Positions 6,374 through 36,394 of a stretch of DNA of 64,000 bases are shown here, in pieces. The notes beneath the pieces are model-generated. The model saw only the letters and a list, made by a program, of their open reading frames with translations. It was not told where the DNA came from and made no database searches. The stretch's first letter is position 1. Each line of letters opens with the position of its first letter. Origin of the DNA: Salipiger thiooxidans (GTDB taxonomy: Bacteria; Pseudomonadota; Alphaproteobacteria; Rhodobacterales; Rhodobacteraceae); contig NZ_FNAV01000002.1 in assembly GCF_900102075.1 (NCBI RefSeq), forward strand, positions 310,001 through 374,000, read 5' to 3'. Position numbers and translations under genes: made by a program.

Positions 6374-6545
6374 GCGCGGCCCCGACGCCCGCCTGCTCAC
6401 GTGCTTTTCCGATCACGTCCAACGCCGAATCGCGCCAAATTTCATGCGCATCTTCAGGGCGTTGGAGCGTTCCATTTCCCGAGACCCCTGGCCCGGAGGC
6501 CGCGCGAACACGAGGCGGAAAGCCCGTGTGCGAGACCACTCCGGA

Positions 6546-6569
6546 GGGGCCTCCCGGCCTCAAGGCCCC
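6546..6569 (-). terminator. Possible hairpin at the end of the YmdB-type gene
   Basis: GGGGCCT (6546-6552) can pair with AGGCCCC (6563-6569) around a ten-base loop, overlapping the last codons of the gene. No strong T-run follows on the minus strand, so termination is uncertain. Confidence 0.3.
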
Positions 6570-7372: not shown

Positions 7373-7508
7373 GTCCGAATGCCTAAGCCGCTGCGCGCGA
7401 AAAGCAAAGCGTGATTTGCGCGTGATCGCCGGACCGGTGCGGCGGTCGGCCTGCGCCGCGCACGTCCTCCTTCGGGAAACTCCCCCGCCATTGTCCCGCC
7501 GCGAGCGC

Positions 7509-8716
<1,208 letters not shown>

Positions 8717-8780
8717 TTAAAGCCTGCGGCAAACCCGTTAAGATCCGCCGCAAAACGGTCGCCGCCATGACATGGTCCAC

Positions 8781-8802
8781 GACACGACCATGACACGACC
8801 AT
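8781..8802. repeat. 11-base tandem duplication
   Basis: GACACGACCAT occurs twice in direct tandem (8781-8791, 8792-8802), followed by GAC. It lies 29 bases upstream of the lipoprotein start and also creates the spurious ATG at 8801. It looks like slippage; no function can be assigned. Confidence 0.8.
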
Positions 8803-8830
8803 GACGCCCCAGAGAAGAAGACCCGAGCAG

Positions 8831-9355: not shown

Positions 9356-9443
9356 AGCAGTTTCCCGCCCGCCGCGGCGCGATCTGAAGCAAACATTAAC
9401 CGAAGCACCGGCATCCTGCGCTCACCCGAAAGGAGCATTGCCG

Positions 9444-22109: not shown

Positions 22110-23504
22110 TCAGGACACCAGCGCCGGGGCGCCGAAGCCCTGCTCGAGCAGCTCGCCCGCCTCGAAGCAGATGTCCTCACGCCACGGCGCCGTCACGAGC
22201 TGCACCCCCGAGGGCACGCCGTCGATGACCCCGGACGAGATCGAGATGCCCGGCAGCGCCAGCAGCGGGATGGCGATCTGCGGAAGCTGCGCCTCCCAGA
22301 GCCGCGCGACGGCGTCGCCGCCCTCGAGATCCGCGTCCTGCCTGAACGGCAGATCCGCCGAGACCGGCATCAGCACCACCGGGTAGTCCTGCAGGAAGCC
22401 GCGCCACGCCCGGATCAGCGCCGAGCGGCGCATGAACACCTCGCTGAAGCGCTTCACGTCCACCGCCGCGGCGCGCGCGGCGTAATGCGAGAGCAGCGCG
22501 ATGGCGCCGGGATCGCCCTCGGCCTGCGCTGCGGCCATCTTGTCGGCGTGGCCGTCCGAGAGCCAGAGGTCGATCTGCAGCTCCACTGCCTCGCGGATCT
22601 CGGGGATCTCGGAGGGCTCGTCGACCTCCCACCCCGCGAGGCGGAAGATGTTCGCGGCACGCTCGAGATCGTCGAGGATGCGCGGGTCGGTGTCGATGCC
22701 GCCCGGACGCTTCACCAGCGCCACGCGGCGCCGGTAGCGCGGCCCCTCGAGCGGCACCGGCGCGCTCCAGGGATCGTCCGCGGCGTAGCCCGCCATGCCT
22801 TCGAGCCCGAGGCGCAGGTCGTCGACCCGGCGCGCGATGGGGCCCGAGACCGCCATGATCTGCGGCCCGATGCCCCGGTCGGGCGAGGAGTGGTTGAACG
22901 TCGGCACCCGCCCCAGCGTCGGGCGCAGCCCCTGCACGCCGCAGGCATAGGCGGGGTAGCGGATCGAGCCCGCGATATCGGTGCCGTGGGCGATGTGGCC
23001 CATGCCGGTCGCCACCGCGGCCCCTGCCCCGCCCGACGATCCGCCGGCGGTCAGCGCCGGGTTATGCGGGTTCCTGGTCTCGCCGTAGAAGTTGTTGGTG
23101 GTGAACCAGCGGTACGAGAAGGCGGGCGTGTTGGTGCGCCCGATGGCGATGGCGTCGTGCTGGCGCATGTGGCGCAGGAACGGGTTGTCCTGCGTCGCCA
23201 CGACGTTCTCGAAGATCCGGCAGCTGTTGGTCGAGGCATAGCCCTTCTGGTCCGACAGTACCTTGATGGTCACCGGCACGCCTGCCAGCGCGCCGATCTG
23301 CTCGCCACGGGCGATGCGGGCGTCCAGCGCCTCGGCCTCGCCCATGGCGTCCTCGCTGCAATCCTGCACGATGGCATTCACCTGCGGGTTTAGCCTGGCC
23401 ACGCGGTCGAGCGTGTCGCGGATGACGTCGGCGGCCTTCAGCTCGCCACGGCGGATGCGCGCGGCGAGCTCGCGCGCGGAAAGGGTGTTCGGATCGGTGC
23501 TCAT
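22110..23504 (-). CDS. Amidase-signature hydrolase
   Basis: A 464-residue amidase of the AS family, which cleaves carboxamides. The Ser-cisSer-Lys triad is visible as Lys81 in PVTIKVLSDQKG, the cis-Ser in GGSSGGAGAAVA (about 154-165) and the nucleophile Ser180 in GTDIAGSIRYPA. It is the last gene of the minus-strand arm of the accessory catabolic region, 36 bases after the 2-hydroxyacid dehydrogenase. Context suggests that it hydrolyses an amide imported by the peptide-type ABC system next door. The substrate is unknown; the sequence does not mark it as GatA. Confidence 0.92.
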   Translation of the reverse strand: MSTDPNTLSARELAARIRRGELKAADVIRDTLDRVARLNPQVNAIVQDCSEDAMGEAEALDARIARGEQIGALAGVPVTIKVLSDQKGYASTNSCRIFENVVATQDNPFLRHMRQHDAIAIGRTNTPAFSYRWFTTNNFYGETRNPHNPALTAGGSSGGAGAAVATGMGHIAHGTDIAGSIRYPAYACGVQGLRPTLGRVPTFNHSSPDRGIGPQIMAVSGPIARRVDDLRLGLEGMAGYAADDPWSAPVPLEGPRYRRRVALVKRPGGIDTDPRILDDLERAANIFRLAGWEVDEPSEIPEIREAVELQIDLWLSDGHADKMAAAQAEGDPGAIALLSHYAARAAAVDVKRFSEVFMRRSALIRAWRGFLQDYPVVLMPVSADLPFRQDADLEGGDAVARLWEAQLPQIAIPLLALPGISISSGVIDGVPSGVQLVTAPWREDICFEAGELLEQGFGAPALVS

Positions 23505-23540
23505 TTCAGGGGGACTTTCGAGAAGACGGGAAATACGGGA

Positions 23541-24446
23541 TCAGGCCGGCTGCAGGTCGAGCATGCGCGCGCGGATGGCGAGGACGACGTTTTCGGGCAC
23601 GGGAATGCTGGCGACATGCGGCGTGATGAAGATCCTGGGGTGGGACCAGAACGGGTGGCCCTGCGGCAGCGGCTCGGTCTCGAACACGTCCACCGAGGCG
23701 CCCGAGAGGTGGCCGCTGTCGATGGCCTCGACCAGCGCGGTCTCGTCCACCTGCCCGCCCCGCCCGATGTGGATGATCGCGGCGCCCTGCGGCAGCTTCG
23801 CCATCAGCTCGGCGCCGATCATCCCTTGCGTCTGCGCGGTGAGCGGCAGCACGTTGATCAGGATGTCGCTCTGGGCAAGGAAGTCGTCGAGCCCGTCGGC
23901 GGTGTAATGCGTCACGCCCGGCATCGGCTCGGGCGCGCGGCGGGAATAGCTCGCCACCGGGTAGCCGAGCGCCGTCAGGCCGCGCGCGATGGCCTGCCCC
24001 ATGTGACCGAAGCCCATGACGCCGATACGCTTTTCCAGCGGAGAGATGCCGTAGAGCTTGCGCTGATAGTCCTGCCGCCCACGTGCCTCGAACCAGCTCG
24101 CCATCTCGCGGTGGTGCCAGAGGACATGGAAGACGCTGAAGCCCGCCATCTGCTGGGCCTGATCGGCATCCTCGACCCGGAAGATCGGCAGCCCCTTGGG
24201 CAGCGAGGGGCAGGCCTCGATGGCATCCACTCCCGCCCCCGCGCCGAAGACGGCGCGCAGGTTGGGATAGGGGGTGAAGGCATCGGCCGCCGGCAGGAAG
24301 GTGAACATGAACTGCACCTCCGCCGGGTTGGCGATCTCGTCGGGGCGTCGCAGATCGAGCTCGGGCGCGACCTTCTCGAAAAGCGGGATGTATCGCTCTC
24401 CCAGTTCGAGTCGAGAGTCGCTCACGACGCCTAGAATGCGGGTCAT
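23541..24446 (-). CDS. 2-hydroxyacid dehydrogenase, GhrA-like (glyoxylate/hydroxypyruvate reductase type)
   Basis: A 301-residue NAD(P)H-dependent dehydrogenase. The nucleotide fold is IGVMGFGHMGQAIARGL (about 140-156). Catalytic residues are the Arg in IHIGRGGQVDE, the Glu in DVFETEPLPQGHPFW and the His in ITPHVASIPVPEN. The missing canonical N-terminal segment and the W/H-rich HVLWHHREMASWFEARG stretch are typical of GhrA. Its start overlaps the ABC ATPase stop by four bases, so it is co-translated with the transporter. In context it may reduce or oxidise a 2-oxo/2-hydroxy acid released during catabolism. Confidence 0.9.
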   Translation of the reverse strand: MTRILGVVSDSRLELGERYIPLFEKVAPELDLRRPDEIANPAEVQFMFTFLPAADAFTPYPNLRAVFGAGAGVDAIEACPSLPKGLPIFRVEDADQAQQMAGFSVFHVLWHHREMASWFEARGRQDYQRKLYGISPLEKRIGVMGFGHMGQAIARGLTALGYPVASYSRRAPEPMPGVTHYTADGLDDFLAQSDILINVLPLTAQTQGMIGAELMAKLPQGAAIIHIGRGGQVDETALVEAIDSGHLSGASVDVFETEPLPQGHPFWSHPRIFITPHVASIPVPENVVLAIRARMLDLQPA

Positions 24447-26062
24447 ACGGTGGCAGTCCTTTGTTGTTCCCAGTCGGCCCCCGGCACGGCCGCCAGAAGC
24501 TTTCGCGTGTATTCCTGCTGAGGGCGCAGGAAGATGTCATGCACGGTGCCGATCTCGACCAACCGGCCCTTCTGCATCACCGCGATACGGTCGCACAGCT
24601 GGGCCGCCACCCTCAGATCGTGGGTGATGAAGAGGATCGACAGCTCCATCTTCTCGCGCAGCTCCCGCAGGAGGTCCAGCACCTGGGCCTGGATAGAGAC
24701 GTCGAGAGCCGAAACTGCCTCATCCGCGATGATCAGTTCGGGGTCCATGGCCAAAGCGCGGGCAATTCCGATACGTTGGCGCTGCCCTCCCGAGAATTCA
24801 TGCGGGAAACGCTGCGCCGCATCGGCCCCGAGTCCCACGATCTCGAGCAGTTCGCGGGCACGGGCCTCGGCCTGCTTGCGGGGCACACCGCGGGTGATCG
24901 GGCCGTCGGTGATCGCGCCCATGATGCGCTGGCGCGGGTTGAGCGAGGCGTAGGGATCCTGGAAGACCATCTGCACCTTGTGGCGCTGCTTGCGCAGCTC
25001 TTCGTCCGAGAGCGCCGCAAGGTCGGTGCCGCCCACAAGCACCTGCCCGCCGTCCGGCGTCACCAGCCGCACCGCGGTGCGGCCCAGCGTCGACTTGCCC
25101 GAACCCGACTCGCCCACGAGGCCCAGCACCTCGCCGCGCGCCACCGAGAGCGACACGTCGTCCACCGCCCGCACCTCGCGCACCGGACGGAAGAAGCCGC
25201 CGCCGGTGCGATAGACCTTGCGCAGCCCCTTGATCTCGAGCGCGGGCGTCTCGGACAGCGCGCGCGCCTCGGGCAGCCGCCCGGTCGGGATCGCGTCGAG
25301 CAGGCGCCGGGTGTAGTCGTGCTGCGGGTCGTTGAGCACGGTTGCCGCGGCGCCACGCTCGACCACCTTGCCCTCGCGCATGACGATGACCTGGTCGGCG
25401 ATCTCCGCCACCACGCCGAAGTCGTGGGTGATGAACATCACCGCCATGCCCCGCCGCTCGCGCAGGTCGAGGATCAGCTTCAGGATCTGCGCCTGCGTCG
25501 TCACGTCGAGCGCCGTGGTGGGCTCATCCGCGATCAGGAGCTTCGGCTCCAGCGCCAGCGCCATGGCGATCATCGCCCGCTGCCGCTGCCCGCCGGACAG
25601 CTGGAAGGGATAGGCGCGGATGATCTTCTCGGGGTCCGGCAGCTGCACCTCGCGGATCAGCTCCAGTGCCCGTTCGCGCCGTTCCGACTGGGTGTAGCGG
25701 TCGTGGGCGGCGAAGACCTCGGCGATCTGGTCGCCGATCCGCATCAGCGGGTTCAGCGCCGTCATCGGCTCCTGGAAGATCATCGCGACCTGCGCGCCGC
25801 GCAGCGCCTGCTTCTCGCTTTCCGGAAGGCGCAGCACGTCGCGCGCCTCGAACATGGCGCGGCCCGCCTTGACCGTCACGCCGGGGGGCAGCAGCCCCAT
25901 CAGCGCGTTGGCGGTCATCGACTTGCCGGAGCCGGATTCGCCCACGACGCAGAGGATCTCGCCCTTGTCGATGGCGAAGCTCACGTCCTCGACCGCGAAG
26001 GGCCGGTCGGCGCCCTCGGGCAGGCCGATGGAGAGGTGCTCGATGGTCAGTGTCGTGCTCAT
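24443..26062 (-). CDS. Peptide-type ABC transporter ATPase, DppD-DppF fusion
   Basis: A 539-residue protein with two complete nucleotide-binding domains in one chain. The first has Walker A GESGSGKS (about 40), the signature LSGGQRQR and the Walker B LLIADEPT. The second has Walker [10 protein letters not shown] (about 320), the signature FSGGQRQR and IIADEAVS. Oligopeptide-type C-terminal extensions (the R-L-L-D-A-I-P and KLLAAVPG regions) follow each domain. I start at ATG 26062, where the first domain begins ([15 protein letters not shown]); the longer frame upstream is the permease read out of frame. Four-base overlaps join it to the permease gene before it and the dehydrogenase gene after it. 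Confidence 0.96.
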
Positions 26063-26892
26063 GCCTTGCCCTTTCGGGAGAGGTGCGGATTCAGTGCATC
26101 GTTGAGTCCTTCGCCGATGAGGTTCAGCGCGAGAACGGTGATGATGATCGCCACGCCCGGGAAGAAACTCAGCCACCAGCTCGAACGGATGACGGTGCGC
26201 GCGGCACCGATCATGTAGCCCCAGCTCATGGCGTTGGGATCGCCTAGGCCGAGGAACGAGAGCGAGCTTTCCAGAAGGATCGCCGTCGCCACCATGAGCG
26301 AGGCCATGACGATGATCGGCGAGACCGTGTTGGGCAGCACCTGCCGCACGAGGATGCGTGGCTTCGACAGGCCCGCGAGGGTCGCGGCGTCGACGAATTC
26401 GCGCTTGCGCACCGACATGACCTCGGCCCGCACGAGGCGTGCCACCGGCGGCCACGAGACGATGGCGATGGCCAGCGTGATCGAGGCCAGCGTCGGCTCG
26501 AAGATCGCCACCAGCACGATGGCCAGCGCGAAGTTGGGGATGGTCTGGAAGAACTCTGTGAAGCGCATGGCGCCTTCATCGACGTAGCCGCCGTAGAAGC
26601 CGGCCAGCGCGCCCAGCGGCACGCCGATCAGCAGCGCCACCAGCGTAGAGACGAGCCCCACCAGCAGCGACACCCGCGCGCCGTAGGCGAGCTGGGCCGC
26701 CACGTCGCGGCCCAGCGTGTCGGTGCCGAGCGGCAGCCCGTCCATGGCAAAGGGTGCAAGGAAGGGCCGCTGTACCATCTGCCAGGGCGAGTTGGCGAAG
26801 ATAAGCGGGGCGAAGATGGCGATGGCGATCACCAGCACCAGCAGGACGACGCCGATCACCGCGCCGATATTGCTCCGGAAGCGTTTCCACAT
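26059..26892 (-). CDS. ABC transporter permease, DppC-like
   Basis: A 277-residue inner-membrane permease. The first helix is at about 8-30 (IGAVIGVVLLVLVIAIAIFAPL), followed by the DppC-type periplasmic segment with GTDTLGRDVAAQLAYGARVSL. A five-helix BPD_transp core includes the EAA-like loop EFVDAATLAGLSKPRILVRQVLPN. It lies three bases after the DppB-like gene and overlaps the ATPase gene by four. It forms the channel with that partner. Confidence 0.95.
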   Translation of the reverse strand: MWKRFRSNIGAVIGVVLLVLVIAIAIFAPLIFANSPWQMVQRPFLAPFAMDGLPLGTDTLGRDVAAQLAYGARVSLLVGLVSTLVALLIGVPLGALAGFYGGYVDEGAMRFTEFFQTIPNFALAIVLVAIFEPTLASITLAIAIVSWPPVARLVRAEVMSVRKREFVDAATLAGLSKPRILVRQVLPNTVSPIIVMASLMVATAILLESSLSFLGLGDPNAMSWGYMIGAARTVIRSSWWLSFFPGVAIIITVLALNLIGEGLNDALNPHLSRKGKA

Positions 26893-26895
26893 GGC

Positions 26896-27873
26896 TCAGG
26901 CCCTCGCGCCGATGCGTGGGTCGACAAGGCGGTAGACGATGTCGGTCACGATGTTGAACAGGATCACCATGGCGGCGGAGACGAGGAACACGCCGAGGAT
27001 GGTGTTGTAGTCGCGCGCGGCGAGGCTCTCGAACATCAGCCGCCCGATGCCGGGCCAGGCGAAGACGGTCTCGGTCAGCACCGCGCCACCCACCAGCTGG
27101 CCCGCCTGCAGGCCCGCCAGCGTCACCACCGGAAGGATGGCGTTGCGCAGGATGTGGCGGCGACGGATGACCCGCCCCGAAAGACCCTTGGCCTTGGCGG
27201 TCTTGACGAAGTCGGCGGTCGAGACCTCGAGCATCGAGGCCCGCGTCATGCGCATGTAGACCGCCATGAAGAACAGCCCCAGCGTGAGGGCCGGCAGGAT
27301 CAGGTGCTTGAGAATGTCGATGACGCGCGCGAGGCCGGTGTAGTCGGCGCCCACGGTCTCGTAGCCGAAGCCGGGCAGCCAGCCGAGCCAGACCGAGAAC
27401 ACCAGCACCGCCATCAGCGCCGCCCAGTAGAGCGGTGTCGCGTAGAACAGCAGCGCCAGCGTGGTCAGCAGGCTGTCCTGCGGCTTGCCCACCCTCGCGG
27501 CGGCGGCGACGCCAAGCGCGATGCCGAGCACCAGCGAGATGACGAAGGCGGTGAGCGTGAGCAGCAGCGTCGCGGGTAGGCGCTCGGCGATCAGGTCGAT
27601 TACCGGGGCGTTCTGGCGGAACGAGTAGCCGAGGTCGAGCTGGGCCACACCGCCCACGTATTTCGCGAGCTGGATGTAGAAGGGCTGGTCGAGGCCGAAG
27701 CGCTCGCGCAGCTGGGCGATCATCTGCTCGTCGGCGGCGCCCGCCTCGCCCGCGAGCACCACGGCGGGATCGCCGGGGGCCGCGTGCAGCAGGCAGAAGT
27801 TCAGAACCGCGATGGCAAGCAGCGTCAGCGCGGCTTTCGCAAGCCGCGACAGGATGGCGACGAAAACGGACAT
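26896..27873 (-). CDS. ABC transporter permease, DppB-like
   Basis: A 325-residue inner-membrane permease of the peptide/nickel class. The first helix (FVAILSRLAKAALTLLAIAVLNFCLLHA) precedes the typical PGDPAVVLAGE segment and a long periplasmic part with the conserved RFGLDQPFYIQLAKYVGG. The BPD_transp core has the EAA loop DFVKTAKAKGLSGRVIRRRHILRNA. It is the second gene of the transporter set, 72 bases after the binding protein, with a hairpin between them. Confidence 0.95.
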   Translation of the reverse strand: MSVFVAILSRLAKAALTLLAIAVLNFCLLHAAPGDPAVVLAGEAGAADEQMIAQLRERFGLDQPFYIQLAKYVGGVAQLDLGYSFRQNAPVIDLIAERLPATLLLTLTAFVISLVLGIALGVAAAARVGKPQDSLLTTLALLFYATPLYWAALMAVLVFSVWLGWLPGFGYETVGADYTGLARVIDILKHLILPALTLGLFFMAVYMRMTRASMLEVSTADFVKTAKAKGLSGRVIRRRHILRNAILPVVTLAGLQAGQLVGGAVLTETVFAWPGIGRLMFESLAARDYNTILGVFLVSAAMVILFNIVTDIVYRLVDPRIGARA

Positions 27874-27910
27874 GCCGGTCGCTCCCTCAGATTGGGTCGT
27901 CAGGGGAGGC

Positions 27911-27935
27911 CGGGCAGGCCCGAGGGGCCCGCCCG
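27911..27935 (-). other. Intercistronic hairpin downstream of the binding-protein gene
   Basis: CGGGC-A-GGCCC (27911-27921) pairs with GGGCC-C-GCCCG (27925-27935) with one A-C mismatch and a three-base loop. No T-run follows. Such stems between a binding protein and its permeases often stabilise the upstream mRNA and raise binding-protein yield; that role here is inference. Confidence 0.5.
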
Positions 27936-27945
27936 ACCGGCTCTG

Positions 27946-29493
27946 TTACTTCTCGATCCAGGCGTTGCGCGGACCGTCGTTCACGCCGATGCCGGTGGTC
28001 ACGAGGTCTTTGATGTCGCAACGGTAGATGGTCGGGAACTCGAGCTCGAGCAGCCAGGCCACCGGCACGTCATCGACGATCTCCTTCTGGATCTCGTTGT
28101 AGGCGGTCTGCCTGTCCTCGGGCGAGATCATCGTCGCGGCAGAGAACCACTTCTCGTCGAGCTCGGGGTTCTCGTAGCCCTCGACGTTGTTCCAAGGGCT
28201 GCCCTTGCTGATCTGGTCAGAGGTGTAGTTCCGCGACACGCCAAGCGCCGGATCGCCGTACTGGTAGAGGTAGGTGAAGGCCATGTCGTAGTCCCACTGG
28301 GACGTCTTCTCGTTCCAGCCGGCGACGTCGGTGCTGTCGATCTCGACGTTGATGCCGACCTCGGTGAGGTTCTGGCGGATGGCCTCGGCCCAGCGCTGCC
28401 AGGTCTCGCCGTAGGGCAGCGGCAGCAGGCGCACGGCCTCGCCGTCATAGCCCATCTCCTCGAGCAGCTCCTTGGCCTTGTCGGGGTTGTAGTCGTAGAT
28501 CGTGACGTCGTCCGAGTAGAAGTTGGTCTTGGACGAGACCGGGCCGGTGGCCACGGTGCCGAAGCCGTTCCACACCACGTCGCGCTGGAAGTTGCGGTCC
28601 ATCGCGTACATCACCGCCTGGCGGAAACGCACGTCCGAGGTCGGCCCCTCGCGGTTGTTGAGCCACATCCAGGCGTGCGGCGCGAAGAATTCCCAGCCCG
28701 AGCCGGTCGAGCACACGCCCTCCATCTCGGTCAGGCGCGGCACGTCCCAGTTCTCGACCGAGCCGCCGGGCAGCACGTCGACTTCGCCGGTCTCGAAGGC
28801 CACCGCGCGCGAGGCGGCGTCGGGGATCACCCGATAGTAGACCTCGTCGAGATAGGGCAGACCGTCGACGTAGTAGTCCTCGTTCTTCACGAGGTGGATG
28901 AAGCTGCCCTTCTCCCAGGCCTCGAACTTGAACGGGCCGGTGCCGATCGGCGTGGCGTTCATCTCGTTGGTGGCGAAATCGGTACCTTCGTAGATGTGCT
29001 TGGGCACCATCGGCATGGTCCCGGTCTCGAAGACCGAGATGAACGGGCCGAAGGGCTCCTTGAGCTGGAACACCACGGTGAGCGGATCCGGCGCGGTGAT
29101 GCTCTCGACATAGGCCAGCGACGAGCGCAGGCGGGCGTGGGTCTCGCGCAGGAAGACGTCGGCCGAGAACACCACGTCATCGGCGGTGAAGGGCTCGCCG
29201 TCGTGCCAGGTCACGCCGTCGCGCAGGTGGAAGGTGTAGGTGAGACCGTCCTCGGAGATCTCCCAGCTTTCCGCCAGCAGCGGCTGTGGGTCGAGGTCGG
29301 TGTTGTATTGCAGCAGGCCTTCGTAGATGTCGCCCGCGACAAGCTGCGTGGGCCCGTTCTGGACGAGGCCCAGCATGAGCGAAGGCGGCTCGGGCTGCAC
29401 GACGATGTCGAGGCGCCCGCCGGCTTCCTGCGCGGCGAGAGGCGCCGCGAGAGCCGCGGCAATAAGGAACGTTGTCGCTTTGAGATGTTTCAT
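27946..29493 (-). CDS. Peptide-type ABC transporter substrate-binding protein
   Basis: A 515-residue periplasmic binding protein of family 5 (SBP_bac_5, DppA/OppA class). The signal peptide is MKHLKATTFLIAAALAAPLAAQ. Family features include DIYEGLLQYNTDLDPQPLLAESW, YTFHLRDGVTWHDGEPFTADDVVFS and VRFRQAVMYAMDRN. It is followed by two permeases and a fused ATPase on the same strand, which gives a complete importer. Ligand specificity cannot be read from the sequence. The linked amidase and deacylases suggest an N-acyl amino acid, acylated amine or peptide-like compound. Confidence 0.95.
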   Translation of the reverse strand: MKHLKATTFLIAAALAAPLAAQEAGGRLDIVVQPEPPSLMLGLVQNGPTQLVAGDIYEGLLQYNTDLDPQPLLAESWEISEDGLTYTFHLRDGVTWHDGEPFTADDVVFSADVFLRETHARLRSSLAYVESITAPDPLTVVFQLKEPFGPFISVFETGTMPMVPKHIYEGTDFATNEMNATPIGTGPFKFEAWEKGSFIHLVKNEDYYVDGLPYLDEVYYRVIPDAASRAVAFETGEVDVLPGGSVENWDVPRLTEMEGVCSTGSGWEFFAPHAWMWLNNREGPTSDVRFRQAVMYAMDRNFQRDVVWNGFGTVATGPVSSKTNFYSDDVTIYDYNPDKAKELLEEMGYDGEAVRLLPLPYGETWQRWAEAIRQNLTEVGINVEIDSTDVAGWNEKTSQWDYDMAFTYLYQYGDPALGVSRNYTSDQISKGSPWNNVEGYENPELDEKWFSAATMISPEDRQTAYNEIQKEIVDDVPVAWLLELEFPTIYRCDIKDLVTTGIGVNDGPRNAWIEK

Positions 29494-29598
29494 GGCTTCC
29501 CTGTCGATTATGGTTCTGGTGATTGGCTGACATCTGTCTTGTCGCAGATTTGTCGTGACGCGCCCCGCCCCCCGTGGACGAGACGCGAAATCCTGGGT

Positions 29599-30369
29599 TC
29601 AGTCCTTGTAGCCCGGCGCCACCTTGTCGAGCTGGCGCAGGAAGGCATCCCACTCCGGGTCGGCGCGGCCGGTCTCGGCGTCCTTGTCATAGGCGCGGGC
29701 GTATTGCTTCGCGGTGTGCTCGGCGACCTCGTGCGGCAGCACGACCGGCGTGAGCCCCATGCCCAGCGCCGCGACCTGCGCCTTGCACGAGCGCTCGAGG
29801 TTCAGCGCCAGCTTCAGCGCCTCGGCCACCGAACGGCCGAGCAGCAGCGTACCGTGGTTGCGCAGCAGCATGACGAACTTGTCGCCGAGGTCGGCCACGA
29901 TGCGCTCGCGCTCGGCGAGGTTCAGTGCGATGCCCTCGTAGTCGTGGAAGGCAATGCGGTCGTAAAACTGCGCCGACCACTGGTTGAGCGGCAGCAGCCC
30001 CTCCTTGATCGACGAGACCGCGACACCCGCCACCGTGTGGGTGTGCAGCACGCAGACCGCGTCATGACGGGCCATGTGCACCGCCGAGTGGATGGTGAAG
30101 CCCGCGGCGTTCACCCCTGCCCCGTAGGGATCGTCCACCACAGCGCCGGTCTCGTCGATGGTGACGAGGTTCGAGGCCGTGACCTCGTCGAAGCGCAGGC
30201 CGTAGGGGTTGAGCAGAAACCGCTTCTCGCCGTCGGGGCCGTCGGGCATGCGCGCCGAGATGTGCGTGTAGATGCTGTCGTCCATCCCGTAGTGGGCAAT
30301 CAGCCGGTAGGCCGCCGCGAGATCGCGCCGAAGCTGCGCCACCGTGTCCGTCATCGCGCCGTCGGGCAT
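29599..30369 (-). CDS. Class II aldolase/adducin-family protein
   Basis: About 256 residues with the class II aldolase fold. The metal ligands are the pair in CVLHTHTVAGVAV and the His of LLRNHGTLLLG, with the conserved GYDxI-like DYEGIALNLAERERI between them. A catalytic Glu is not obvious in the usual place. This matches the many family members that are not sugar-phosphate aldolases. I start at ATG 30369 (AGAAGGA upstream); ATG 30354 is the alternative. It is the first gene of the minus-strand arm, divergent from the GntR regulator and next to its operator. Function in this pathway is unknown. Confidence 0.9.
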   Translation of the reverse strand: MPDGAMTDTVAQLRRDLAAAYRLIAHYGMDDSIYTHISARMPDGPDGEKRFLLNPYGLRFDEVTASNLVTIDETGAVVDDPYGAGVNAAGFTIHSAVHMARHDAVCVLHTHTVAGVAVSSIKEGLLPLNQWSAQFYDRIAFHDYEGIALNLAERERIVADLGDKFVMLLRNHGTLLLGRSVAEALKLALNLERSCKAQVAALGMGLTPVVLPHEVAEHTAKQYARAYDKDAETGRADPEWDAFLRQLDKVAPGYKD

Positions 30370-30432
30370 GAGAGTCGTCCTTCTGCTGTCGGGTGTCGAA
30401 AGGAAGGACAATTTTGCATCTTTGGTCAAGTC

Positions 30433-30446
30433 GATTGTCGACAATC
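30433..30446. promoter_or_regulatory. Probable GntR/FCD operator palindrome
   Basis: GATTGTCGACAATC is a perfect 14-base palindrome midway between the divergent aldolase and GntR genes. Its core TTGT-CG-ACAA resembles the TnGTnnnACnA targets of FCD-type GntR proteins. Two further half-like ACAATT blocks flank it (30409-30414 and 30456-30461). It probably controls both arms. Confidence 0.62.
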
Positions 30447-30487
30447 GGCAGAAAGACAATTAGCCTGACTTCAAAGTTGCACTCCCC

Positions 30488-31201
30488 GTGATGGTTTTTA
30501 TGGATCACTCCGACGCAAACGAAGGCTTTGCACCCCTCGACCGCGAGGGGCTTGTCCAGCGCGTCGCGCGACGACTGAGCAAGGCCATCGTGTCCGGCCA
30601 GCTGACACCCGGCGAGCGGCTCTCCGAATCGGTCGTGGCGCGGCAGCTCGGCGTCAGCCGGGCGCCGGTGCGCGAGGCGGCGCGACTGCTCGAGAACTCG
30701 GGGCTGGTCACCTACCTGCCAAACCGCGGCTTCTTCGTGCGCAAGTTCTCGGCCGAGGAGCTCGACAACCTCTACGAGCTGCGCATCATCATCGAGACCG
30801 CCGCCATCCGCCGCCTGATCCGCGAGGGGCTGGGCGACACCGAAGCGGCGCTCGAGGCCCAGATCCAGGAGCTGCACCGGGTGGCCGGGCCCGGCCACGA
30901 CATGCTGACCCAGGTCGAGGCGGACATGCAGTTCCACCGGCTGATCTGCGCGGGCTCGGGCAACCCCCGCTTCCTCGGCGTGTTCGAGCAGATCGCGCTC
31001 GAGACTGAGCTCACCATCATGCTGATCGGCAAGCTCTACGACGATGCCCACCGGCTGGCCGACACCCACGTCCCCATTCTCGACGCGCTGCGCGGCGGCG
31101 ACGAGCGCGTGGCCGTCGAGGCCATGCATTTTCACCTCGATGTCGCGCGACTGCTGGTCACCGAGCAGTTCCGCAAACTGGAAGACGGATCCGACGAATG
31201 A
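30488..31201 (+). CDS. GntR-family regulator, FCD subfamily
   Basis: About 233-237 residues. The N-terminal winged helix is at about 18-85: LVQRVARRLSKAIVSGQLTPGERLSESVVARQLGVSRAPVREAARLLENSGLV in outline, with the typical turn VSRAPVREA. The C-terminal FCD ligand-binding domain has candidate metal-site residues (D and H in EADMQFHRLICAGSGN and in EAMHFHLDVARLL). FCD proteins usually bind small organic acids and repress divergent catabolic genes. Starts at 30488 (GTG), 30491 and 30500 are all possible and the ribosome-binding site is weak. The stop overlaps the next gene as ATGA. Confidence 0.92.
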   Translation: MMVFMDHSDANEGFAPLDREGLVQRVARRLSKAIVSGQLTPGERLSESVVARQLGVSRAPVREAARLLENSGLVTYLPNRGFFVRKFSAEELDNLYELRIIIETAAIRRLIREGLGDTEAALEAQIQELHRVAGPGHDMLTQVEADMQFHRLICAGSGNPRFLGVFEQIALETELTIMLIGKLYDDAHRLADTHVPILDALRGGDERVAVEAMHFHLDVARLLVTEQFRKLEDGSDE

Positions 31202-32226
31202 AATGCTTCTACGCCCCCGAGACCGACCTTCATGACCCGGTCTTTCGCCTCACTCACGGCAAGATCCTCCGCAACGCCGAGCAGGCCGAGCGCGCGAAAC
31301 TGCTGAAGGCGGGGCTTGACGAGCTCGGCCTCGCCACCATCGAGCCGGCCCAGGCGTCGCGCGACGCGCTCGAGGCGGTGCACACGCCCGCGTTCCTCGA
31401 CTTCCTCGAGACCGCCTGGGACGAGTGGCAGAAGCTGCCCAACTGCGGCCCCGAGGTGGTGCCCAACGTCTTCGCCCAGCGCAGCTTTGCCACCTACCCC
31501 GAGAGCGTCGTGGGCAAGGCCGGCTGGCACATGGGCGACACCTCGGCCCCGATCGGCGAGCACACCTGGACCGCCGCCCGCCGCGCTGCCGATTGCGCCG
31601 TGGCGGCCGCCGACGCGGTGCTCGCGGGCGACCGCGTCGCCTACGCGCTCTGCCGTCCCGCCGGGCACCACACCTCGGCCGACATGGCCGCCGGTCACTG
31701 CATGATGAACAACTCCGCCATCGCCGCCGCCCGCCTGCGCACACAGCACGACAAGGTGGCGACGCTCGACATCGACGTGCACCACGGCAACGGCACGCAG
31801 GCGATCTTCTACGACCGCGCCGATGTGCTGACCGTCTCGGTCCACGCCGACCCGACGAGCTACTACCCGTTCTTCGTGGGCTACGCGCACGAGTCCGGCA
31901 GCGGCGCGGGCGAAGGCCACAACGTCAACTTCCCCCTGCCCCGCACCACCACCGACGAGGCCTGGCTCGAGACCATCGCCGAGGGGCTGCGCGCCATCGC
32001 CTCCTTCGAGCCCGGCGCCCTGATGCTGAGCCTCGGGCTCGACGCGCACGAGAAGGACCCGCTCATGGGGATGCAGATCAGCTGGGACGGCTTCCGCCGG
32101 GCCGGCGAGATGATCGCCGCGGCGGGCTACCCCACGGTGATCGTGCAGGAAGGCGGCTACCTCTCCGAGGACCTGACCACCTCGCTGGTGTCGTTCATGA
32201 ACGGCTTCCTGGGCCGCGACGCATGA
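31198..32226 (+). CDS. Histone-deacetylase-fold amidohydrolase (acetylpolyamine aminohydrolase-like)
   Basis: A 342-residue zinc hydrolase of the HDAC/AcuC/APAH superfamily. Visible motifs are the catalytic tandem His157-His158 in CRPAGHHTS, AGHCMMNN, zinc ligands Asp193 and His195 in LDIDVHHGNGTQ, and the later Asp in LSLGLDAHEKDPL. The active-site Tyr region lies near QEGGYLSED. Bacterial relatives remove acetyl groups from polyamines or cleave other acylamides. It overlaps the GntR gene by four bases and the M20 gene by four bases, so the three are coupled. Context favours catabolism rather than protein deacetylation. Confidence 0.93.
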   Translation: MKCFYAPETDLHDPVFRLTHGKILRNAEQAERAKLLKAGLDELGLATIEPAQASRDALEAVHTPAFLDFLETAWDEWQKLPNCGPEVVPNVFAQRSFATYPESVVGKAGWHMGDTSAPIGEHTWTAARRAADCAVAAADAVLAGDRVAYALCRPAGHHTSADMAAGHCMMNNSAIAAARLRTQHDKVATLDIDVHHGNGTQAIFYDRADVLTVSVHADPTSYYPFFVGYAHESGSGAGEGHNVNFPLPRTTTDEAWLETIAEGLRAIASFEPGALMLSLGLDAHEKDPLMGMQISWDGFRRAGEMIAAAGYPTVIVQEGGYLSEDLTTSLVSFMNGFLGRDA

Positions 32227-33506
32227 GCCTGTCGCCGGAGCTTACCCAGAAGATCCTCGCCGCCGTCGAAGAGGGCTTCGAGGAGCAGATCGACTTCACC
32301 GAGGCGCTCGGCCGCTACCCCTCGCTGCGCGGGCAGGAAGCGACGGCGCAGGATTTCCTGCACGACGAGCTGAAGAAGCGCGGCTACGCGATGGACCGCT
32401 GGACCATCGAGGTCGACGACATCAGGCATCACCCCGGCTTCTCGCCGGTCGAGGTCGACTATTCCAACGCCATCAACGTCGTGGGCACGCTGCGCCCGCG
32501 CGAGGAGAAGGGCAAGTCACTGGTGCTGAACGGCCACGTGGACGTGGTGCCCGAGGGGCCGCTCGACATGTGGTCCTCGCCCCCCTTCGAGCCGCGCCGC
32601 GACGGTGACTGGCTCTATGGCCGCGGCATCGCCGACATGAAGGCCGGGATCGCCGCCAACATCTATGCCGTGGACGCGCTGAAGCGCCTCGGCTACCGGC
32701 CCGCCGCCACCGTCTACCAGCAGTCGGTGGTCGAGGAGGAATGCACCGGCAACGGCGCGCTCGCGGCGCTGCTGCGCGGCTACAACGCCGACGCCGCGAT
32801 CATCCCCGAGCCCGAGGACGACAAGCTGGTGCGCGCCAACACCGGCGTGCTGTGGTTCCGCGTCCGGGTGCAGGGCGTGCCCGTGCACGTGCGCGAGGCG
32901 GGCTCCGGCGCCAACGCCATCGAGGCCGCCTACGAGCTGATCAAGGGGCTGCGCGCGCTCGAGGCCGCGTGGAACGACCAGAAGGGCGACCACCGCTACT
33001 TCGAAGAGCTCGACCACCCGATCAACTTCAACGTGGGCAAGATCGCGGGCGGCGACTGGGCCTCGTCGGTGCCGGCATGGTGCGAATTCGACTGCCGCAT
33101 CGCGCTTTATCCCGGCATCAGGGCCGCCGATGCCGCCCGCGAGATCGAGGACCACCTGCGCCGCGTGTCGGACGGCATCCCGTTCCTGGCCAACAACCCG
33201 CCGCAGGTCATCTTCAACGGCTTCTTCGCCGAGGGCTACATGCTTGAAGAGGGCACCGAGGCCGAGGAGACCCTCGCCCGCGCCCACATGTCGAGCTATG
33301 CCAAGCCGCTCGAGAGCTTCGTGACGCCGGGCTATCTCGATGGCCGGGTCTTCGTGATCTACGGCGAGACACCCTGCCTCGTCTACGGCCCCTACTCCGA
33401 AGCGATCCACGGCTTCGACGAGCGCGTGAAGCTGTCGTCGGTGAAGCGCGTGACGGGCACGATTGCGCTCTTTATCGCCGAATGGTGCGGGCTGGAGGAG
33501 ATTTGA
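32223..33506 (+). CDS. M20-family ArgE/DapE-type deacylase
   Basis: A 427-residue metallo-deacylase. The di-metal site is present: His105 and Asp107 in VLNGHVDVVP, Asp138 in GRGIADMKAG, the Glu pair near 171-172 in QQSVVEEECTGNG, Glu in IIPEPED and a His near the end (SEAIHGFDE). The dimerisation domain lies between about 200 and 320. Members hydrolyse N-acyl amino acids or N-succinyl/N-acetyl intermediates. Its start overlaps the stop of the HDAC-like gene. Two different deacylases in tandem suggest a substrate with two acyl groups or two successive deacylation steps; this is inference. Confidence 0.93.
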   Translation: MSLSPELTQKILAAVEEGFEEQIDFTEALGRYPSLRGQEATAQDFLHDELKKRGYAMDRWTIEVDDIRHHPGFSPVEVDYSNAINVVGTLRPREEKGKSLVLNGHVDVVPEGPLDMWSSPPFEPRRDGDWLYGRGIADMKAGIAANIYAVDALKRLGYRPAATVYQQSVVEEECTGNGALAALLRGYNADAAIIPEPEDDKLVRANTGVLWFRVRVQGVPVHVREAGSGANAIEAAYELIKGLRALEAAWNDQKGDHRYFEELDHPINFNVGKIAGGDWASSVPAWCEFDCRIALYPGIRAADAAREIEDHLRRVSDGIPFLANNPPQVIFNGFFAEGYMLEEGTEAEETLARAHMSSYAKPLESFVTPGYLDGRVFVIYGETPCLVYGPYSEAIHGFDERVKLSSVKRVTGTIALFIAEWCGLEEI

Positions 33507-33639
33507 TCAAATTCTCACGTGACCTTTCCCGCCAACTGCACTTAGACTTGCCGCCAACGGGGACCCGAGTCTCCCATGGCCCTTCCCCGAACCGAAACCC
33601 CGGGCCCGCGCGGGCCCGACAGCCAACAAGGGATCCCAA

Positions 33640-35022
33640 ATGAACCAGCGTCCGAATTCGCTTCACGCCGCCGACATCGCCTACACGATGCACCCCTACA
33701 CCAACATGCGCCTGCATGAGGAAAAGGGTCCGATGATCATGAGCCATGGCGACGGCGCCAAGGTCTATGACACCGAGGGCAAGGAATACATCGAGGCACT
33801 GGCAGGCCTGTGGTCGGTTGCGGTGGGCTTCTCGGAGACCCGTCTCGCCGATGCCGCCTACGAGCAGCTCAAGAAGCTGCCCTACTACCACACCTTCGCG
33901 CACAAGTCGCACGAGCCGTCGATCCGTCTGGCCGAGAAGCTCGTCGAGATGACCCCCGAGGGGCTCAACAAGGTGTTCTTCACCAACTCCGGCTCGGAAG
34001 CCAACGACACCGTCGTCAAGATGGTCTGGTTCCTCAACAACGGCCTTGGCCGCCCGGAGAAGAAGAAGTTCCTGTCGCGCAACAAGGCCTACCACGGCAT
34101 CACCATCGCGTCGGGCTCGCTCACCGGCCTGCCGGCGAACCAGAAGGACTTCGACCTTCCGGCGATCCCGGTCACCCACCTGACCACGCCGCACTACTGG
34201 AAGTTCGCCGAGGAAGGCGAGACCGAAGAAGAGTTCACCGCGCGCCTGCTGAAGGAGCTCGAGGACACCATCATCGCCGAAGGCCCCGAGACCATCGGCG
34301 CCTTCATCGGTGAGCCCGTGATGGGCGCCGGCGGTGTCATGGTGCCGCCCGAGGGCTACTGGCCCGGCGTCGCGGAAATCTGCGCCAAGTACGACATCCT
34401 GCTGGTGGCGGACGAGGTCATCAACGGCTTCGGCCGGACCGGCAAGCCCTTCGGCTGCGAGCGCTTCGGCTTCACTCCCGACATCCTCGTGACCTCGAAG
34501 CAGCTCACCTCGTCCTACATGCCGCTCGCCGCCATCGTGGTGAACGACAAGGTCTACAACGCCATCGCAGACAACACCGCCAAGCTCGGCACCTTCGGCC
34601 ACGGCTTCACCGGCTCGGGCCACCCCGTCGCCTGCGCCGTGGGTCTCGAGAACCTGAAGATCATCGAAGAGAAGGATCTGATGGGCAACGCCGAGCGTCT
34701 GGAGCCGATGTTCCAGGCGGGTCTGCGCAAGTTCGCCGATCACCCGCTGGTGGGCGAAGTGCGCGGCGTCGGCCTCATCGCCGGCGTCGAGCTTGCCAAG
34801 GACCGCGAAAAGCGCGAGGCCTTCGAGCCCGCGGGTTCCATGGCCGCGAAGGTCGTCGCGCTCTGCGCCGAGGAAGGCCTGATCGTGCGCAACGTCTACG
34901 AGACCGTGGCCTTCTGCCCGCCGCTGATCGTGACCGAGGACGACATCACCGAGATCCTTGCCCGCTTCGGGCGTGCGCTCGACCGGGCGCTGGAGTGGGC
35001 CAAGTCGGAAGGCATGCTCTGA
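33640..35022 (+). CDS. Class III pyridoxal-phosphate aminotransferase (omega-transaminase type)
   Basis: A 460-residue aminotransferase. PLP-binding features are TNSGSEANDTVVK (about 115-127), the YHGITIASGSLTG segment, Asp258 in LLVADEVINGFGRTG and the Schiff-base Lys287 in LVTSKQLTSSYMP. Roseobacter relatives transfer amino groups from omega-amino acids, polyamines or taurine-like amines to pyruvate or glutamate. It begins 133 bases after the M20 gene in the same direction and probably completes that arm. It ends at the hairpin/repeat at 35053. Confidence 0.93.
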   Translation: MNQRPNSLHAADIAYTMHPYTNMRLHEEKGPMIMSHGDGAKVYDTEGKEYIEALAGLWSVAVGFSETRLADAAYEQLKKLPYYHTFAHKSHEPSIRLAEKLVEMTPEGLNKVFFTNSGSEANDTVVKMVWFLNNGLGRPEKKKFLSRNKAYHGITIASGSLTGLPANQKDFDLPAIPVTHLTTPHYWKFAEEGETEEEFTARLLKELEDTIIAEGPETIGAFIGEPVMGAGGVMVPPEGYWPGVAEICAKYDILLVADEVINGFGRTGKPFGCERFGFTPDILVTSKQLTSSYMPLAAIVVNDKVYNAIADNTAKLGTFGHGFTGSGHPVACAVGLENLKIIEEKDLMGNAERLEPMFQAGLRKFADHPLVGEVRGVGLIAGVELAKDREKREAFEPAGSMAAKVVALCAEEGLIVRNVYETVAFCPPLIVTEDDITEILARFGRALDRALEWAKSEGML

Positions 35023-35134: not shown

Positions 35135-36274
35135 TCAGAGGACCCCTTGCAGCTCCAGCCCGTCGGGGCGTTTCGCCAGCCGGATGAGCGTGCTCTCGGC
35201 GCCGGGCCGCAGCGCGCCGATGCCCTCGGGCAGCCCCGCCAGTCTTGCCGGAACCGAAGTCGCCATGGCGAGCGCACGGTCCAGCGCGATCCCCACATCC
35301 GCCACCAGCACGTTCACCGCCCGCGTGAGATCGAGATCCGCGCCCGCGAGCGTGCCGTCGGCCAGCACCAGCCGCCCGTCGCAGCGGCGGATCTCGCGCC
35401 CGTTCAGCCGGAAGCTCCGGTCCCCGGTTCCCGCGACCGCCATGGCGTCGGTGACGAGGAAGATGCCCTCGGGACGGGCGCCCAGCGCGATGCGCATCGC
35501 CGCCGGGTGGACGTGTTCGCCGTCGGCGATAATCCCTGCCGCGAGGCCCGTTTCGGAGAGCGCCGCCCCCACGAGCCCCGGCTCGCGCTTGTCCATCTGG
35601 CTCATGGCGTTGAAGAGATGGGTGACGCAGCGCGCGCCGGCCTCGAGGTAGTCCATGCAGGTGTCGTAATCGGCGTCCGTGTGGCCGAGCGACACCAGCG
35701 CCCCTGCCCCGGCAAGCTCGGCCACCTGGTCGGGGCTCACGCTTTCGGGGGCGATGGTCACCATCAGCACCGGCAGGTCGGCGGCGGCGGCGCAGAGCAT
35801 GTCGAGGTCGCGCCGCTCCATCCGGCGCACCAGCCGGCCGTCATGGGCGCCCTTGCGCGCCAGCGACAGGTGCGGGCCCTCGAGATGCAGCCCGCCGATC
35901 CCCGGCACACCCGCGGCGAGCGCCGCGCGCACCGCCTCGATGGCGTCGCGGCTGTGCTGGTAGGTGTCGGTGATCAGCGTGGGCAGGATGGTGGTGGCCC
36001 CAAGGCCCCGGTGGGCGGCGGCGATGCGGCGAAGGTCCCCGGGGTTCGGGCCGTCGTTGACCATCACCCCGCCGCCGCCGTTGACCTGAAGGTCGACATA
36101 GCCCGGCGCCAGCAGGTCGCCGCCGAGGTCGGTGACGGTGCCCTCGGTCGCCAGTTCCGCGCGGGGCGCCAGTGCCAGCACCTTCGCCCCCAGCATCCGC
36201 AGGGCATGGTCAGTGAGGGTGCGCTGGCCGTCGAAGATGTCTCCCCCGACGAAGGTCCGGATCTGTTCTGTCAT
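35135..36274 (-). CDS. nagA: N-acetylglucosamine-6-phosphate deacetylase
   Basis: A 379-residue amidohydrolase that deacetylates GlcNAc-6-P during amino-sugar recycling. Motifs are LLAPGYVDLQVNGGGG (about 55-70), GLHLEGPHLS (metal-binding Glu), LVSLGHTDADY (His), THLFNAMSQM and VTDAMAVAG (catalytic Asp). ATG 36274 is preceded by GAAAGGTGG; the longer frame is not family-like. No sugar transporter or nagB is adjacent, so the gene stands alone here. Confidence 0.95.
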   Translation of the reverse strand: MTEQIRTFVGGDIFDGQRTLTDHALRMLGAKVLALAPRAELATEGTVTDLGGDLLAPGYVDLQVNGGGGVMVNDGPNPGDLRRIAAAHRGLGATTILPTLITDTYQHSRDAIEAVRAALAAGVPGIGGLHLEGPHLSLARKGAHDGRLVRRMERRDLDMLCAAAADLPVLMVTIAPESVSPDQVAELAGAGALVSLGHTDADYDTCMDYLEAGARCVTHLFNAMSQMDKREPGLVGAALSETGLAAGIIADGEHVHPAAMRIALGARPEGIFLVTDAMAVAGTGDRSFRLNGREIRRCDGRLVLADGTLAGADLDLTRAVNVLVADVGIALDRALAMATSVPARLAGLPEGIGALRPGAESTLIRLAKRPDGLELQGVL

Positions 36275-36394
36275 GGCGGCCACCTTTCCGACACCGGCCA
36301 CGCCGCGGGGTGCGGCGACCGGATCGCTACGACTGGCTTGTGGCACGGGACCGCGTCGCAGGCGCGGACCGCCCTGCGCCCTGTCGGTGAGGGC

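What the first reader, a model, noticed from the sequence alone, without database searches (positions are those of the whole stretch)
22110..35022. Two-armed, GntR-controlled catabolic module combining an HDAC-fold amidohydrolase, an M20 deacylase, an amidase and a peptide-type importer
The arms diverge from one palindrome (30433-30446). The minus arm has a class II aldolase, a full ABC importer, a GhrA-like dehydrogenase and an amidase. The plus arm has GntR, an acetylpolyamine-aminohydrolase-like enzyme, an ArgE/DapE-type deacylase and a class III aminotransferase. Stop/start overlaps tie most genes together. Three different C-N hydrolases plus a transaminase suggest stepwise stripping of a multiply acylated or amidated amine. 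I know of no named pathway with exactly this set.
Basis: partly seen in the sequence, partly recalled or inferred. Interest (0 to 1): 0.72.

Follow-up and report, generated by a model that had tools for sequence, protein, structure and literature searches.

The report
Unnamed importer-plus-deacetylase catabolic gene module
A marine bacterium of the Salipiger type carries an unnamed, mobile gene set, shared with many relatives, that probably imports a small acetylated nitrogen compound, strips it and feeds on it; what the compound is remains unknown, but the usual guess, acetylated polyamines, fits poorly.

Summary
In detail: eleven genes in two divergent arms with a palindromic candidate operator between them. 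The arms are truly linked: 30 of 40 close relatives keep both, and the operator core is kept with at most one mismatch in 30 of 36.

The interpretation needs changing. Amidase (16 of 40) and M20 deacylase (11 of 40) are accessory; all eleven genes occur in 8 of 40. Importer, aldolase-like protein, GntR, 2-oxoacid reductase and omega-transaminase are steadier (29-32 of 40). The HDAC-fold enzyme keeps the catalytic residues checked but lacks both polyamine-selectivity markers tested; the same genome has another paralogue with both, beside a Pot-type importer. Acetylpolyamines are thus the weaker reading.

Among 24 importer-found loci examined, 16 hold an HDAC-fold gene and 11 both that and a second deacylase. 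Best reading: a GntR-controlled, horizontally moving module that imports, deacylates and transaminates an N-acylated omega-amino or diamino acid or small peptide. The substrate is not identified. Ten searches of a partial paper library found no name for it. Novelty: an uncharacterised variant of a known kind of catabolic operon.

The parts
22110..23504 (-). Amidase-signature amidase, NCBIfam PRK07487 subfamily (accessory gene)
   Evidence: Pfam PF01425 263 bits; NF005687 602 bits, cut-off 428; kept in 16 of 40 close loci
23541..24446 (-). GhrA-like 2-hydroxyacid dehydrogenase (2-oxoacid reductase), below the GhrA equivalog cut-off
   Evidence: PF02826 161 bits; NF012013 GhrA 174 bits, cut-off 403; 29 of 40 close loci
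24443..26062 (-). Double-ABC ATPase of a peptide-type importer (DppD and DppF types in one protein); start taken at the ATG at 26062
   Evidence: two PF00005 stretches and oligo_HPY; junction read
26059..26892 (-). DppC-type permease
   Evidence: PF00528 and PF12911
26896..27873 (-). DppB-type permease
   Evidence: PF00528 and PF19300
27874..27945 (-). Hairpin between binding protein and first permease gene; perhaps stabilises the binding-protein mRNA (inference)
   Evidence: fold of 27868-27950: -45.8 kcal/mol, z -3.4, 0 of 200 shuffles as good
27946..29493 (-). Family 5 substrate-binding protein of the importer
   Evidence: PF00496 316 bits; none of the 12 NCBIfam models listed reaches its cut-off
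29599..30369 (-). Class II aldolase/adducin-like protein, PRK07044 subfamily; metal-type His residues present, FucA-type catalytic Glu not found
   Evidence: PF00596 162 bits; NF005451 323 bits, cut-off 207; alignment
30432..30447 (.). 16-bp perfect palindrome, candidate operator of the GntR/FCD regulator between the two arms
30488..31201 (+). GntR-family FCD-type regulator
   Evidence: PF00392 and PF07729
31198..32226 (+). HDAC-fold deacetylase, APAH-like fold, without the polyamine-selectivity residues tested
   Evidence: PF00850 249 bits; AlphaFold2 pLDDT 92.1, best PDB 3men and 3q9b; motif survey; tree
32223..33506 (+). ArgE/DapE-type M20 deacylase, PRK06837 subfamily (accessory gene)
   Evidence: PF01546; NF005306 671 bits, cut-off 376; closest PDB 3pfo; 11 of 40 close loci
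33640..35022 (+). Class III omega-aminotransferase, PRK06105 subfamily
   Evidence: NF004767 750 bits, cut-off 517; closest PDB by sequence 6g4b, whose ends match the published PjAT primers when translated by eye; 32 of 40 close loci

Best explanation
A self-contained, horizontally mobile catabolic module. Shown by sequence: a peptide-type ABC importer, a GntR/FCD regulator with a conserved palindrome between the arms, an HDAC-fold deacetylase, an omega-transaminase, a 2-oxoacid reductase and a class II aldolase-like protein form one conserved unit; an amidase and an M20 deacylase are optional. Inferred: GntR represses both arms until an imported compound or its product relieves it. The importer brings in an N-acylated omega-amino or diamino acid, or a small peptide holding one (acyl-lysine, acyl-ornithine or acyl-diaminobutyrate type). 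The amidase or M20 enzyme frees the amide or alpha-acyl end, the HDAC-fold enzyme removes an acetyl group from the distal amine, and the transaminase turns that amine into an aldehyde with pyruvate as acceptor. The reductase and the aldolase-like lyase then handle the remaining oxo or hydroxy acid. The exact substrate and the order of steps are not shown.
For: Linkage: both arms in 30 of 40 loci with HDAC identity of 64% or more and 7 of 40 below that. In a sample of 198 family genomes, all 10 with the binding-protein clade are among the 52 with the HDAC-fold protein (hypergeometric P 8e-7, shared ancestry ignored); in 9 of the 10 the two genes lie within about 10 kb on one contig (coordinates). 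Operator conservation. Six catalytic positions kept in all 81 HDAC-fold rows. Polyamine markers absent. Closest solved transaminase is PjAT, a 6-aminohexanoate:pyruvate enzyme. Importer relatives elsewhere carry M20, carbamoylase-type Zn-hydrolase or amidase genes: 16 of 24 importer-found loci at 35% identity (rounded) or more, 11 of 24 together with an HDAC-fold gene. The module tree puts Thalassospira (Rhodospirillales) inside an 11-row clade of Roseobacter-group modules (100/100), and copies sit on plasmids.
Against: No substrate, expression or binding data. Nearest structures of the HDAC-fold enzyme are ApaH enzymes, and changes at two selectivity positions do not prove another substrate. 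The preference for acetyl over longer acyl groups is itself uncertain here: PMC11532494 ties it to RPPGHH and XGGY, and the window enzyme has RPAGHH. The binding-protein fold prediction failed (pLDDT 56), so its pocket gives no clue. Ten of 40 close loci lack the gntR-binding-protein pair; two of these have a Rieske oxygenase (L074) or another ABC importer (L087) nearby. Eight of 24 importer-found loci lack an HDAC-fold gene. The aldolase-like protein lacks the FucA-type Glu, so its role is open.
Confidence: 0.45

Rival explanations
1. Acetylpolyamine (or other acetylated diamine) utilisation: the importer takes up acetylpolyamines, the HDAC-fold enzyme deacetylates them, the transaminase starts degradation.
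For: Fold and nearest structures are ApaH enzymes: 3men, 3q9b, 6phr, 9gkz; class III transaminases often act on diamines (general knowledge).
Against: The PIS motif is replaced by PLx or PFx in the 79 of 81 rows whose tripeptide was printed (two were not printed), and position 105 (E106 in M. ramosa ApaH, H106 in PsApaH) is V, L, I, T or A in 81 of 81 (roles of these residues from passages of PMC11532494). A separate own-genome paralogue with E and PIS lies in a PotA/B/D-like cluster and groups with the characterised enzymes, 100/100. The importer is family 5, not Pot-type.
Confidence: 0.15
2. General scavenging of N-acylated amino acids or acetylated peptides: the three hydrolases act on different substrates rather than in series on one molecule.
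For: Amidase and M20 come and go independently of each other (patterns); the importer is dipeptide-type; second deacylases differ between relatives.
Against: The arms and the aldolase-like, reductase and transaminase set are conserved as a unit with one conserved palindrome, which suggests one compound class with specific downstream chemistry.
Confidence: 0.25
3. Breakdown of a specific amide-bearing natural product or man-made amide (for example a hydroxamate siderophore, an opine-like compound or an amide pesticide).
For: Optional amidase; RPAGHH in the window enzyme, a change that PMC11532494 reports for the dimethoate and propanil hydrolases; plasmid and cross-order mobility.
Against: RPAGHH is in 14 of 41 close rows, the other 27 have RPPGHH; the loci come from many marine and soil genera rather than from degraders of one pollutant; no opine- or siderophore-specific gene was seen to be conserved with it in the loci I looked at.
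Confidence: 0.1

Closest known systems
Acetylpolyamine amidohydrolases (M. ramosa ApaH 3q9b, Pseudomonas ApaH 9gkz, M. subterrani 6phr; cluster 4 of PMC11532494)
   Same: Fold (TM by query length 0.84-0.94, 36-38% identity; 3men 44%), catalytic residues, L2 region aligned without gaps to 3q9b, EGGY motif (24 of 24 rows)
   Different: PIS and E106/H106 absent; separate clade, with the ApaH clade on a 1.21 branch at 100/100; linked to a family 5 importer instead of a Pot-type one
PjAT, 6-aminohexanoate:pyruvate omega-transaminase of caprolactam degradation (PMC6061476; 6g4b)
   Same: Alignable over nearly the whole length, 1-455 of 460; the P. jessenii enzyme deaminates an omega-amino acid with pyruvate
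   Different: No caprolactamase and no semialdehyde dehydrogenase among the eleven genes
Dpp/Opp-type peptide importers
   Same: Binding protein, two permeases, two ABC domains
   Different: The two ATPase domains are in one protein, and the binding protein does not reach the cut-off of the DppA, OppA, GsiB or NikA models
Ectoine catabolism cluster (recalled; only listings seen)
   Same: Import, deacetylation of an acetylated diamino acid, class III transaminase, GntR-type DNA-binding domain in the regulator
   Different: Regulator is FCD-type, not MocR-type; deacetylase is HDAC-fold; no ectoine hydrolase family found among the eleven genes
GhrA glyoxylate/hydroxypyruvate reductase
   Same: Best NCBIfam match of the dehydrogenase
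   Different: 174 bits against a cut-off of 403

Membership tests
Bacterial polyamine deacetylases (ApaH, cluster 4) | HDAC fold with conserved catalytic and zinc residues | tested here: met
   81 of 81 rows keep the six residues checked; model pLDDT 92.1
Bacterial polyamine deacetylases (ApaH, cluster 4) | PIS motif at the gatekeeper position | tested here: not met
   PLM in the window; PLx or PFx in the 79 of 81 rows printed
Bacterial polyamine deacetylases (ApaH, cluster 4) | Polar residue (E106 in MrApaH, H106 in PsApaH) at the end of the L2 loop | tested here: not met
   V105 in the window; V, L, I, T or A in 81 of 81
Bacterial polyamine deacetylases (ApaH, cluster 4) | Phylogenetic grouping with characterised ApaH | tested here: not met
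   MrApaH, PsApaH, MsApaH and the own-genome paralogue form a 100/100 clade without the window enzyme in a 39-row tree; the cluster assignment of PMC11532494 itself was not repeated
Bacterial polyamine deacetylases (ApaH, cluster 4) | Head-to-head dimer through L1 and L2 loops | not tested
   only a monomer was modelled
Bacterial polyamine deacetylases (ApaH, cluster 4) | Activity on acetylpolyamines | not testable with these tools
   needs the purified enzyme
ArgE/DapE-type M20 deacylases | Score over a curated cut-off | tested here: met
   NF005306 671 bits over 376; TIGR01910 282 over 218
PRK06105-type class III aminotransferases | Score over the curated cut-off | tested here: met
   NF004767 750 bits over 517
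L-fuculose-phosphate-type class II aldolases | Catalytic Glu (E73 of FucA, recalled) and metal-binding His residues | tested here: not met
   HxH and the later His are present; at the place of the Glu of one FucA-like own-genome protein (L149) the 10 module-type rows have Ala, or Gly if the alignment is shifted by one
GntR/FCD regulators | GntR HTH and FCD domain | tested here: met
   PF00392 and PF07729
GntR/FCD regulators | Binding to the palindrome | not testable with these tools
   only sequence conservation of the palindrome was tested
GhrA | Score over the equivalog cut-off | tested here: not met
   174 bits against 403

The most novel reading that the evidence does not exclude
An unrecognised complete route for doubly N-acylated short diamino acids. 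M20 or amidase frees the alpha end; a 2-oxo acid arises and the GhrA-like enzyme reduces it to a 2-hydroxy acid; the HDAC-fold enzyme removes the distal acetyl; the omega-transaminase makes a 2-hydroxy-omega-aldehyde; and the class II aldolase-like enzyme splits it. For a diaminobutyrate skeleton this would yield glyoxylate and acetaldehyde. In relatives a kinase plus phospho-lyase or a TPP-dependent decarboxylase-like enzyme would replace the late steps. Every enzyme of the module gets a job, and a clade of HDAC-fold enzymes becomes acyl-amino-acid deacetylases misnamed as acetylpolyamine enzymes.
Probability: 0.1. Interest if true: 0.65.

Novelty: new variant of a known kind. Interest (0 to 1): 0.45.

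Why it matters
A conserved module shared by Rhodobacterales, Thalassospira and, in looser form, more distant proteobacteria points to an acetylated organic nitrogen compound common enough to earn its own importer and regulator, yet unnamed. It also shows that a clade of HDAC-fold enzymes close to 'acetylpolyamine' enzymes has changed the polyamine-selectivity residues and probably does something else, which matters for annotation. The module gives a short list of purified-protein tests that could name the compound.

Tried and rejected
Neighbouring nagA (35135-36346) as part of the module: rejected. Of the 115 loci searched (20 + 84 + 11, some of them overlapping stretches of one genome) it was found in five rows, four S. 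bermudensis and one S. pentaromativorans, of which L034 and L059 are the same stretch; the DEAD-box helicase gene on the other side was found in eight rows, all Salipiger, with the same duplicate.

M20-amt gap as an RNA element: the fold is no better than shuffles (z -0.38). Promoter and terminator scans were at chance level (1 found against 1.0 expected, 6 against 5.3).

Binding-protein structure to guess the ligand: the model was poor (pLDDT 56) and was not searched further. PDB sequence hits of the binding protein spread over proteins of many names.

Beta-lysine route as the function here: considered because a related HDAC-fold gene in Shinella sits with a transaminase, a BKACE enzyme and a GNAT, but none of the eleven genes is a BKACE or GNAT; the library search gave nothing on it. 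The old enzymology of that route is recalled, not read.

Hydroxylysine route: kinase plus phospho-lyase-type pairs occur in some importer relatives, not among the eleven genes; no useful paper found.

In one search four extra aldolase rows (L151, L152, L154, L155) were read in a wrong frame and ignored; L149 alone served as the FucA-like yardstick. My quick ORF picks were crude and were used only for orientation. Thresholds (for example dehydrogenase 50%, M20 65%, transaminase 58%) are mine; more diverged partners are not counted there, loci cut by contig ends lower the counts, and some species appear more than once. Of the 198 plasmid records with the binding-protein clade I looked at 13.

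Papers: PMC11532494 and PMC6061476 seen as passages; all other papers as search listings with the starts of abstracts only.


Full report
What is there. The window lies in a 5.87 Mb genome (G000:C30:310001-374000). Its same-genus neighbour in the sample (G088) has a contig of the same length, with the module at the same place, as Salipiger bermudensis AmN7-7, so the host is a Salipiger-type marine bacterium of the Rhodobacterales. The two arms diverge around a 16-bp perfect palindrome at 30432-30447. Four of nine within-arm junctions are 4-bp overlaps.

Is it a unit? Of 40 loci with 64% or more HDAC identity, 30 hold both arms; counts per gene: aldolase-like 30, binding protein 30, each permease 30, ATPase 30, gntR 31, dehydrogenase 29, transaminase 32, amidase 16, M20 11; all eleven genes in 8. 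Of the 40 loci below 64%, 7 hold both arms and 26 show the HDAC-fold gene alone at my thresholds. A second sample: of 198 genomes of the family, 52 have the HDAC-fold protein (E 1e-80 or better) and 10 the binding-protein clade (E 1e-150 or better). All 10 are among the 52, hypergeometric P 8e-7 (this ignores shared ancestry). In 9 of the 10 the two genes lie within about 10 kb on one contig; in G092 they do not (coordinates).

The operator. TTGTNNACAA occurs once in the window (0.11 expected). In 36 relatives with both aldolase-like gene and gntR, ATTGTCGACAAT is exact in 21, within one mismatch in 30, within two in 35; the last has three. Random stretches of the same loci gave 14 of 1800 within one mismatch. 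This supports, but does not prove, a GntR operator.

The HDAC-fold enzyme. In one search it is always there by design, since the loci were found with it; the importer-first sample gives 16 of 24. Its model is confident (pLDDT 92.1) and the best PDB matches are ApaH enzymes. PMC11532494 (passages) ties bacterial polyamine specificity to the L1 and L2 loops with head-to-head dimers, a PIS motif, and residue 106 (Glu in M. ramosa ApaH, His in PsApaH). Aligned to these, the window enzyme has PLM and Val. Over 81 rows (80 relatives and the window) position 105 is never Glu or His, and none of the 79 printed tripeptides is PIS. The own-genome paralogue (G000:C22, L051) has Glu and PIS, lies with PotA/B/D-like genes and a class III transaminase, and groups with MrApaH, PsApaH and MsApaH at 100/100, apart from the window enzyme. 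Acetyl rather than longer acyl groups is what PMC11532494 associates with RPPGHH and XGGY; the window has EGGY but RPAGHH, as do 14 of 41 close rows; the other 27 have RPPGHH, so this point is not firm. PIS is not confined to polyamine loci either: one of the two HDAC-fold enzymes in the Comamonadaceae cluster, next to this importer type, has it.

The transaminase. Its closest solved relative by sequence is 6g4b. The first and last residues of 6g4b match, translated by eye, the primers that PMC6061476 gives for PjAT, an enzyme that deaminates 6-aminohexanoate with pyruvate. This favours an omega-amino acid or amine, but class III specificity is easily changed (general knowledge).

The aldolase-like protein. 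It belongs to NCBIfam PRK07044. The metal-type His residues are present, while the position of the catalytic Glu of FucA-type aldolases (number recalled) is Ala, or Gly if shifted by one, in the 10 module-type rows aligned with one FucA-like protein. It may be a lyase, decarboxylase or something else; 'aldolase' is only a family name.

Relatives further out. Plasmid records and genome stretches with the importer show a changing set of partners: M20 (Nitratireductor, P. liaowanqingii, Qingshengfaniella, Azospirillum, Skermanella), carbamoylase-type Zn-hydrolase (Haematobacter, Comamonadaceae, Chelatococcus, Azospirillum, Thioclava), amidase (Thioclava, Tistrella), ketopantoate-reductase-like proteins in place of the GhrA-like one (Azospirillum, Skermanella), kinase plus class III or PRK06148-type aminotransferase (Comamonadaceae, Thioclava, Chelatococcus), a TPP enzyme (Azospirillum, Chelatococcus). 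I counted 24 loci that the binding-protein searches list: 13 plasmid records of the 198 found, and 11 of the 13 places in the 198 genomes (the window itself and G094, the same record as L056, left out). An HDAC-fold gene is present in 16, a second deacylase or amidase at 35% identity (rounded) or more in 16, both in 11 (some query genes come from these very loci; two further loci found by the aldolase-like gene were left out). Against: Neorhizobium, Thioclava, Tistrella, K84, Pseudohalocynthiibacter and the three G092 loci show no HDAC-fold gene.

Mobility. A tree of five joined module proteins from 25 loci nests three Thalassospira (Rhodospirillales) inside an 11-row clade with Salipiger, Allosediminivita, Thalassovita, Actibacterium and Chachezhania at 100/100. 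Copies sit on plasmids in Pseudosulfitobacter, Qingshengfaniella and Nitratireductor. The module, or large parts, has probably moved between orders.

Mechanism. Best reading (0.45): GntR-controlled import, deacylation, distal deacetylation, omega-transamination, then reduction and cleavage of the carbon chain; substrate an N-acylated omega-amino or diamino acid or small peptide. Shown: gene content, linkage, operator conservation, catalytic residues, missing polyamine markers. Inferred: regulation, substrate class, order of steps. Acetylpolyamines get 0.15, general scavenging by independent hydrolases 0.25, a special natural or man-made amide 0.1; the rest is unknown.

Known or new. Ten library searches found no paper naming this module (one search was aimed at the transaminase only). 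The library lacks most subscription papers, so this is weak evidence of absence. Each part belongs to a known family, and an importer with a local regulator and a degradation set is a familiar kind. I rate it a new variant of a known kind.

Noticed in passing
G000:C22:3451-9801 (L051): Second HDAC-fold gene of the same genome with canonical ApaH residues, beside PotA/B/D-like importer genes and a class III transaminase: a likely acetylpolyamine locus.
   Followed up: yes
L057 (Shinella sp. PSBB067 plasmid) 3199-10029: Amino-acid importer, class III transaminase, BKACE enzyme (NF053538, whose name is a 3,5-dioxohexanoate enzyme), GNAT and HDAC-fold gene in one run; resembles what an aerobic beta-lysine route through acetylated intermediates would need (pathway recalled). 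A GNAT next to the HDAC-fold gene recurs on several plasmids listed.
   Followed up: partly
L116 8964-12425, L131, L074 7444-11023: Rieske oxygenase genes directly beside HDAC-fold and transaminase (or dehydrogenase) genes in Oceaniglobus, a MAG and Pseudooceanicola: another way of opening a related substrate?
   Followed up: no
L080 8266-12544 (Salipiger pallidus): Only the HDAC-fold and transaminase genes of the module lie beside the DEAD-box helicase gene that flanks it in other Salipiger: likely remnant or partial module at the same site.
   Followed up: partly
L054 193-4181 (Pseudosulfitobacter plasmid): Siderophore-type genes (N-hydroxylase, GNAT, alpha/beta hydrolase, sigma factor) close to the module; not looked for systematically in other relatives.
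   Followed up: no
window 27874-27945: Strong hairpin between binding-protein and permease genes (z -3.4).
   Followed up: partly
L142, L133, L135 (Comamonadaceae): Two different HDAC-fold genes in one cluster; in L142 one is of the DAHE type like the window's and the other has RPSGHH and PIS.
   Followed up: partly
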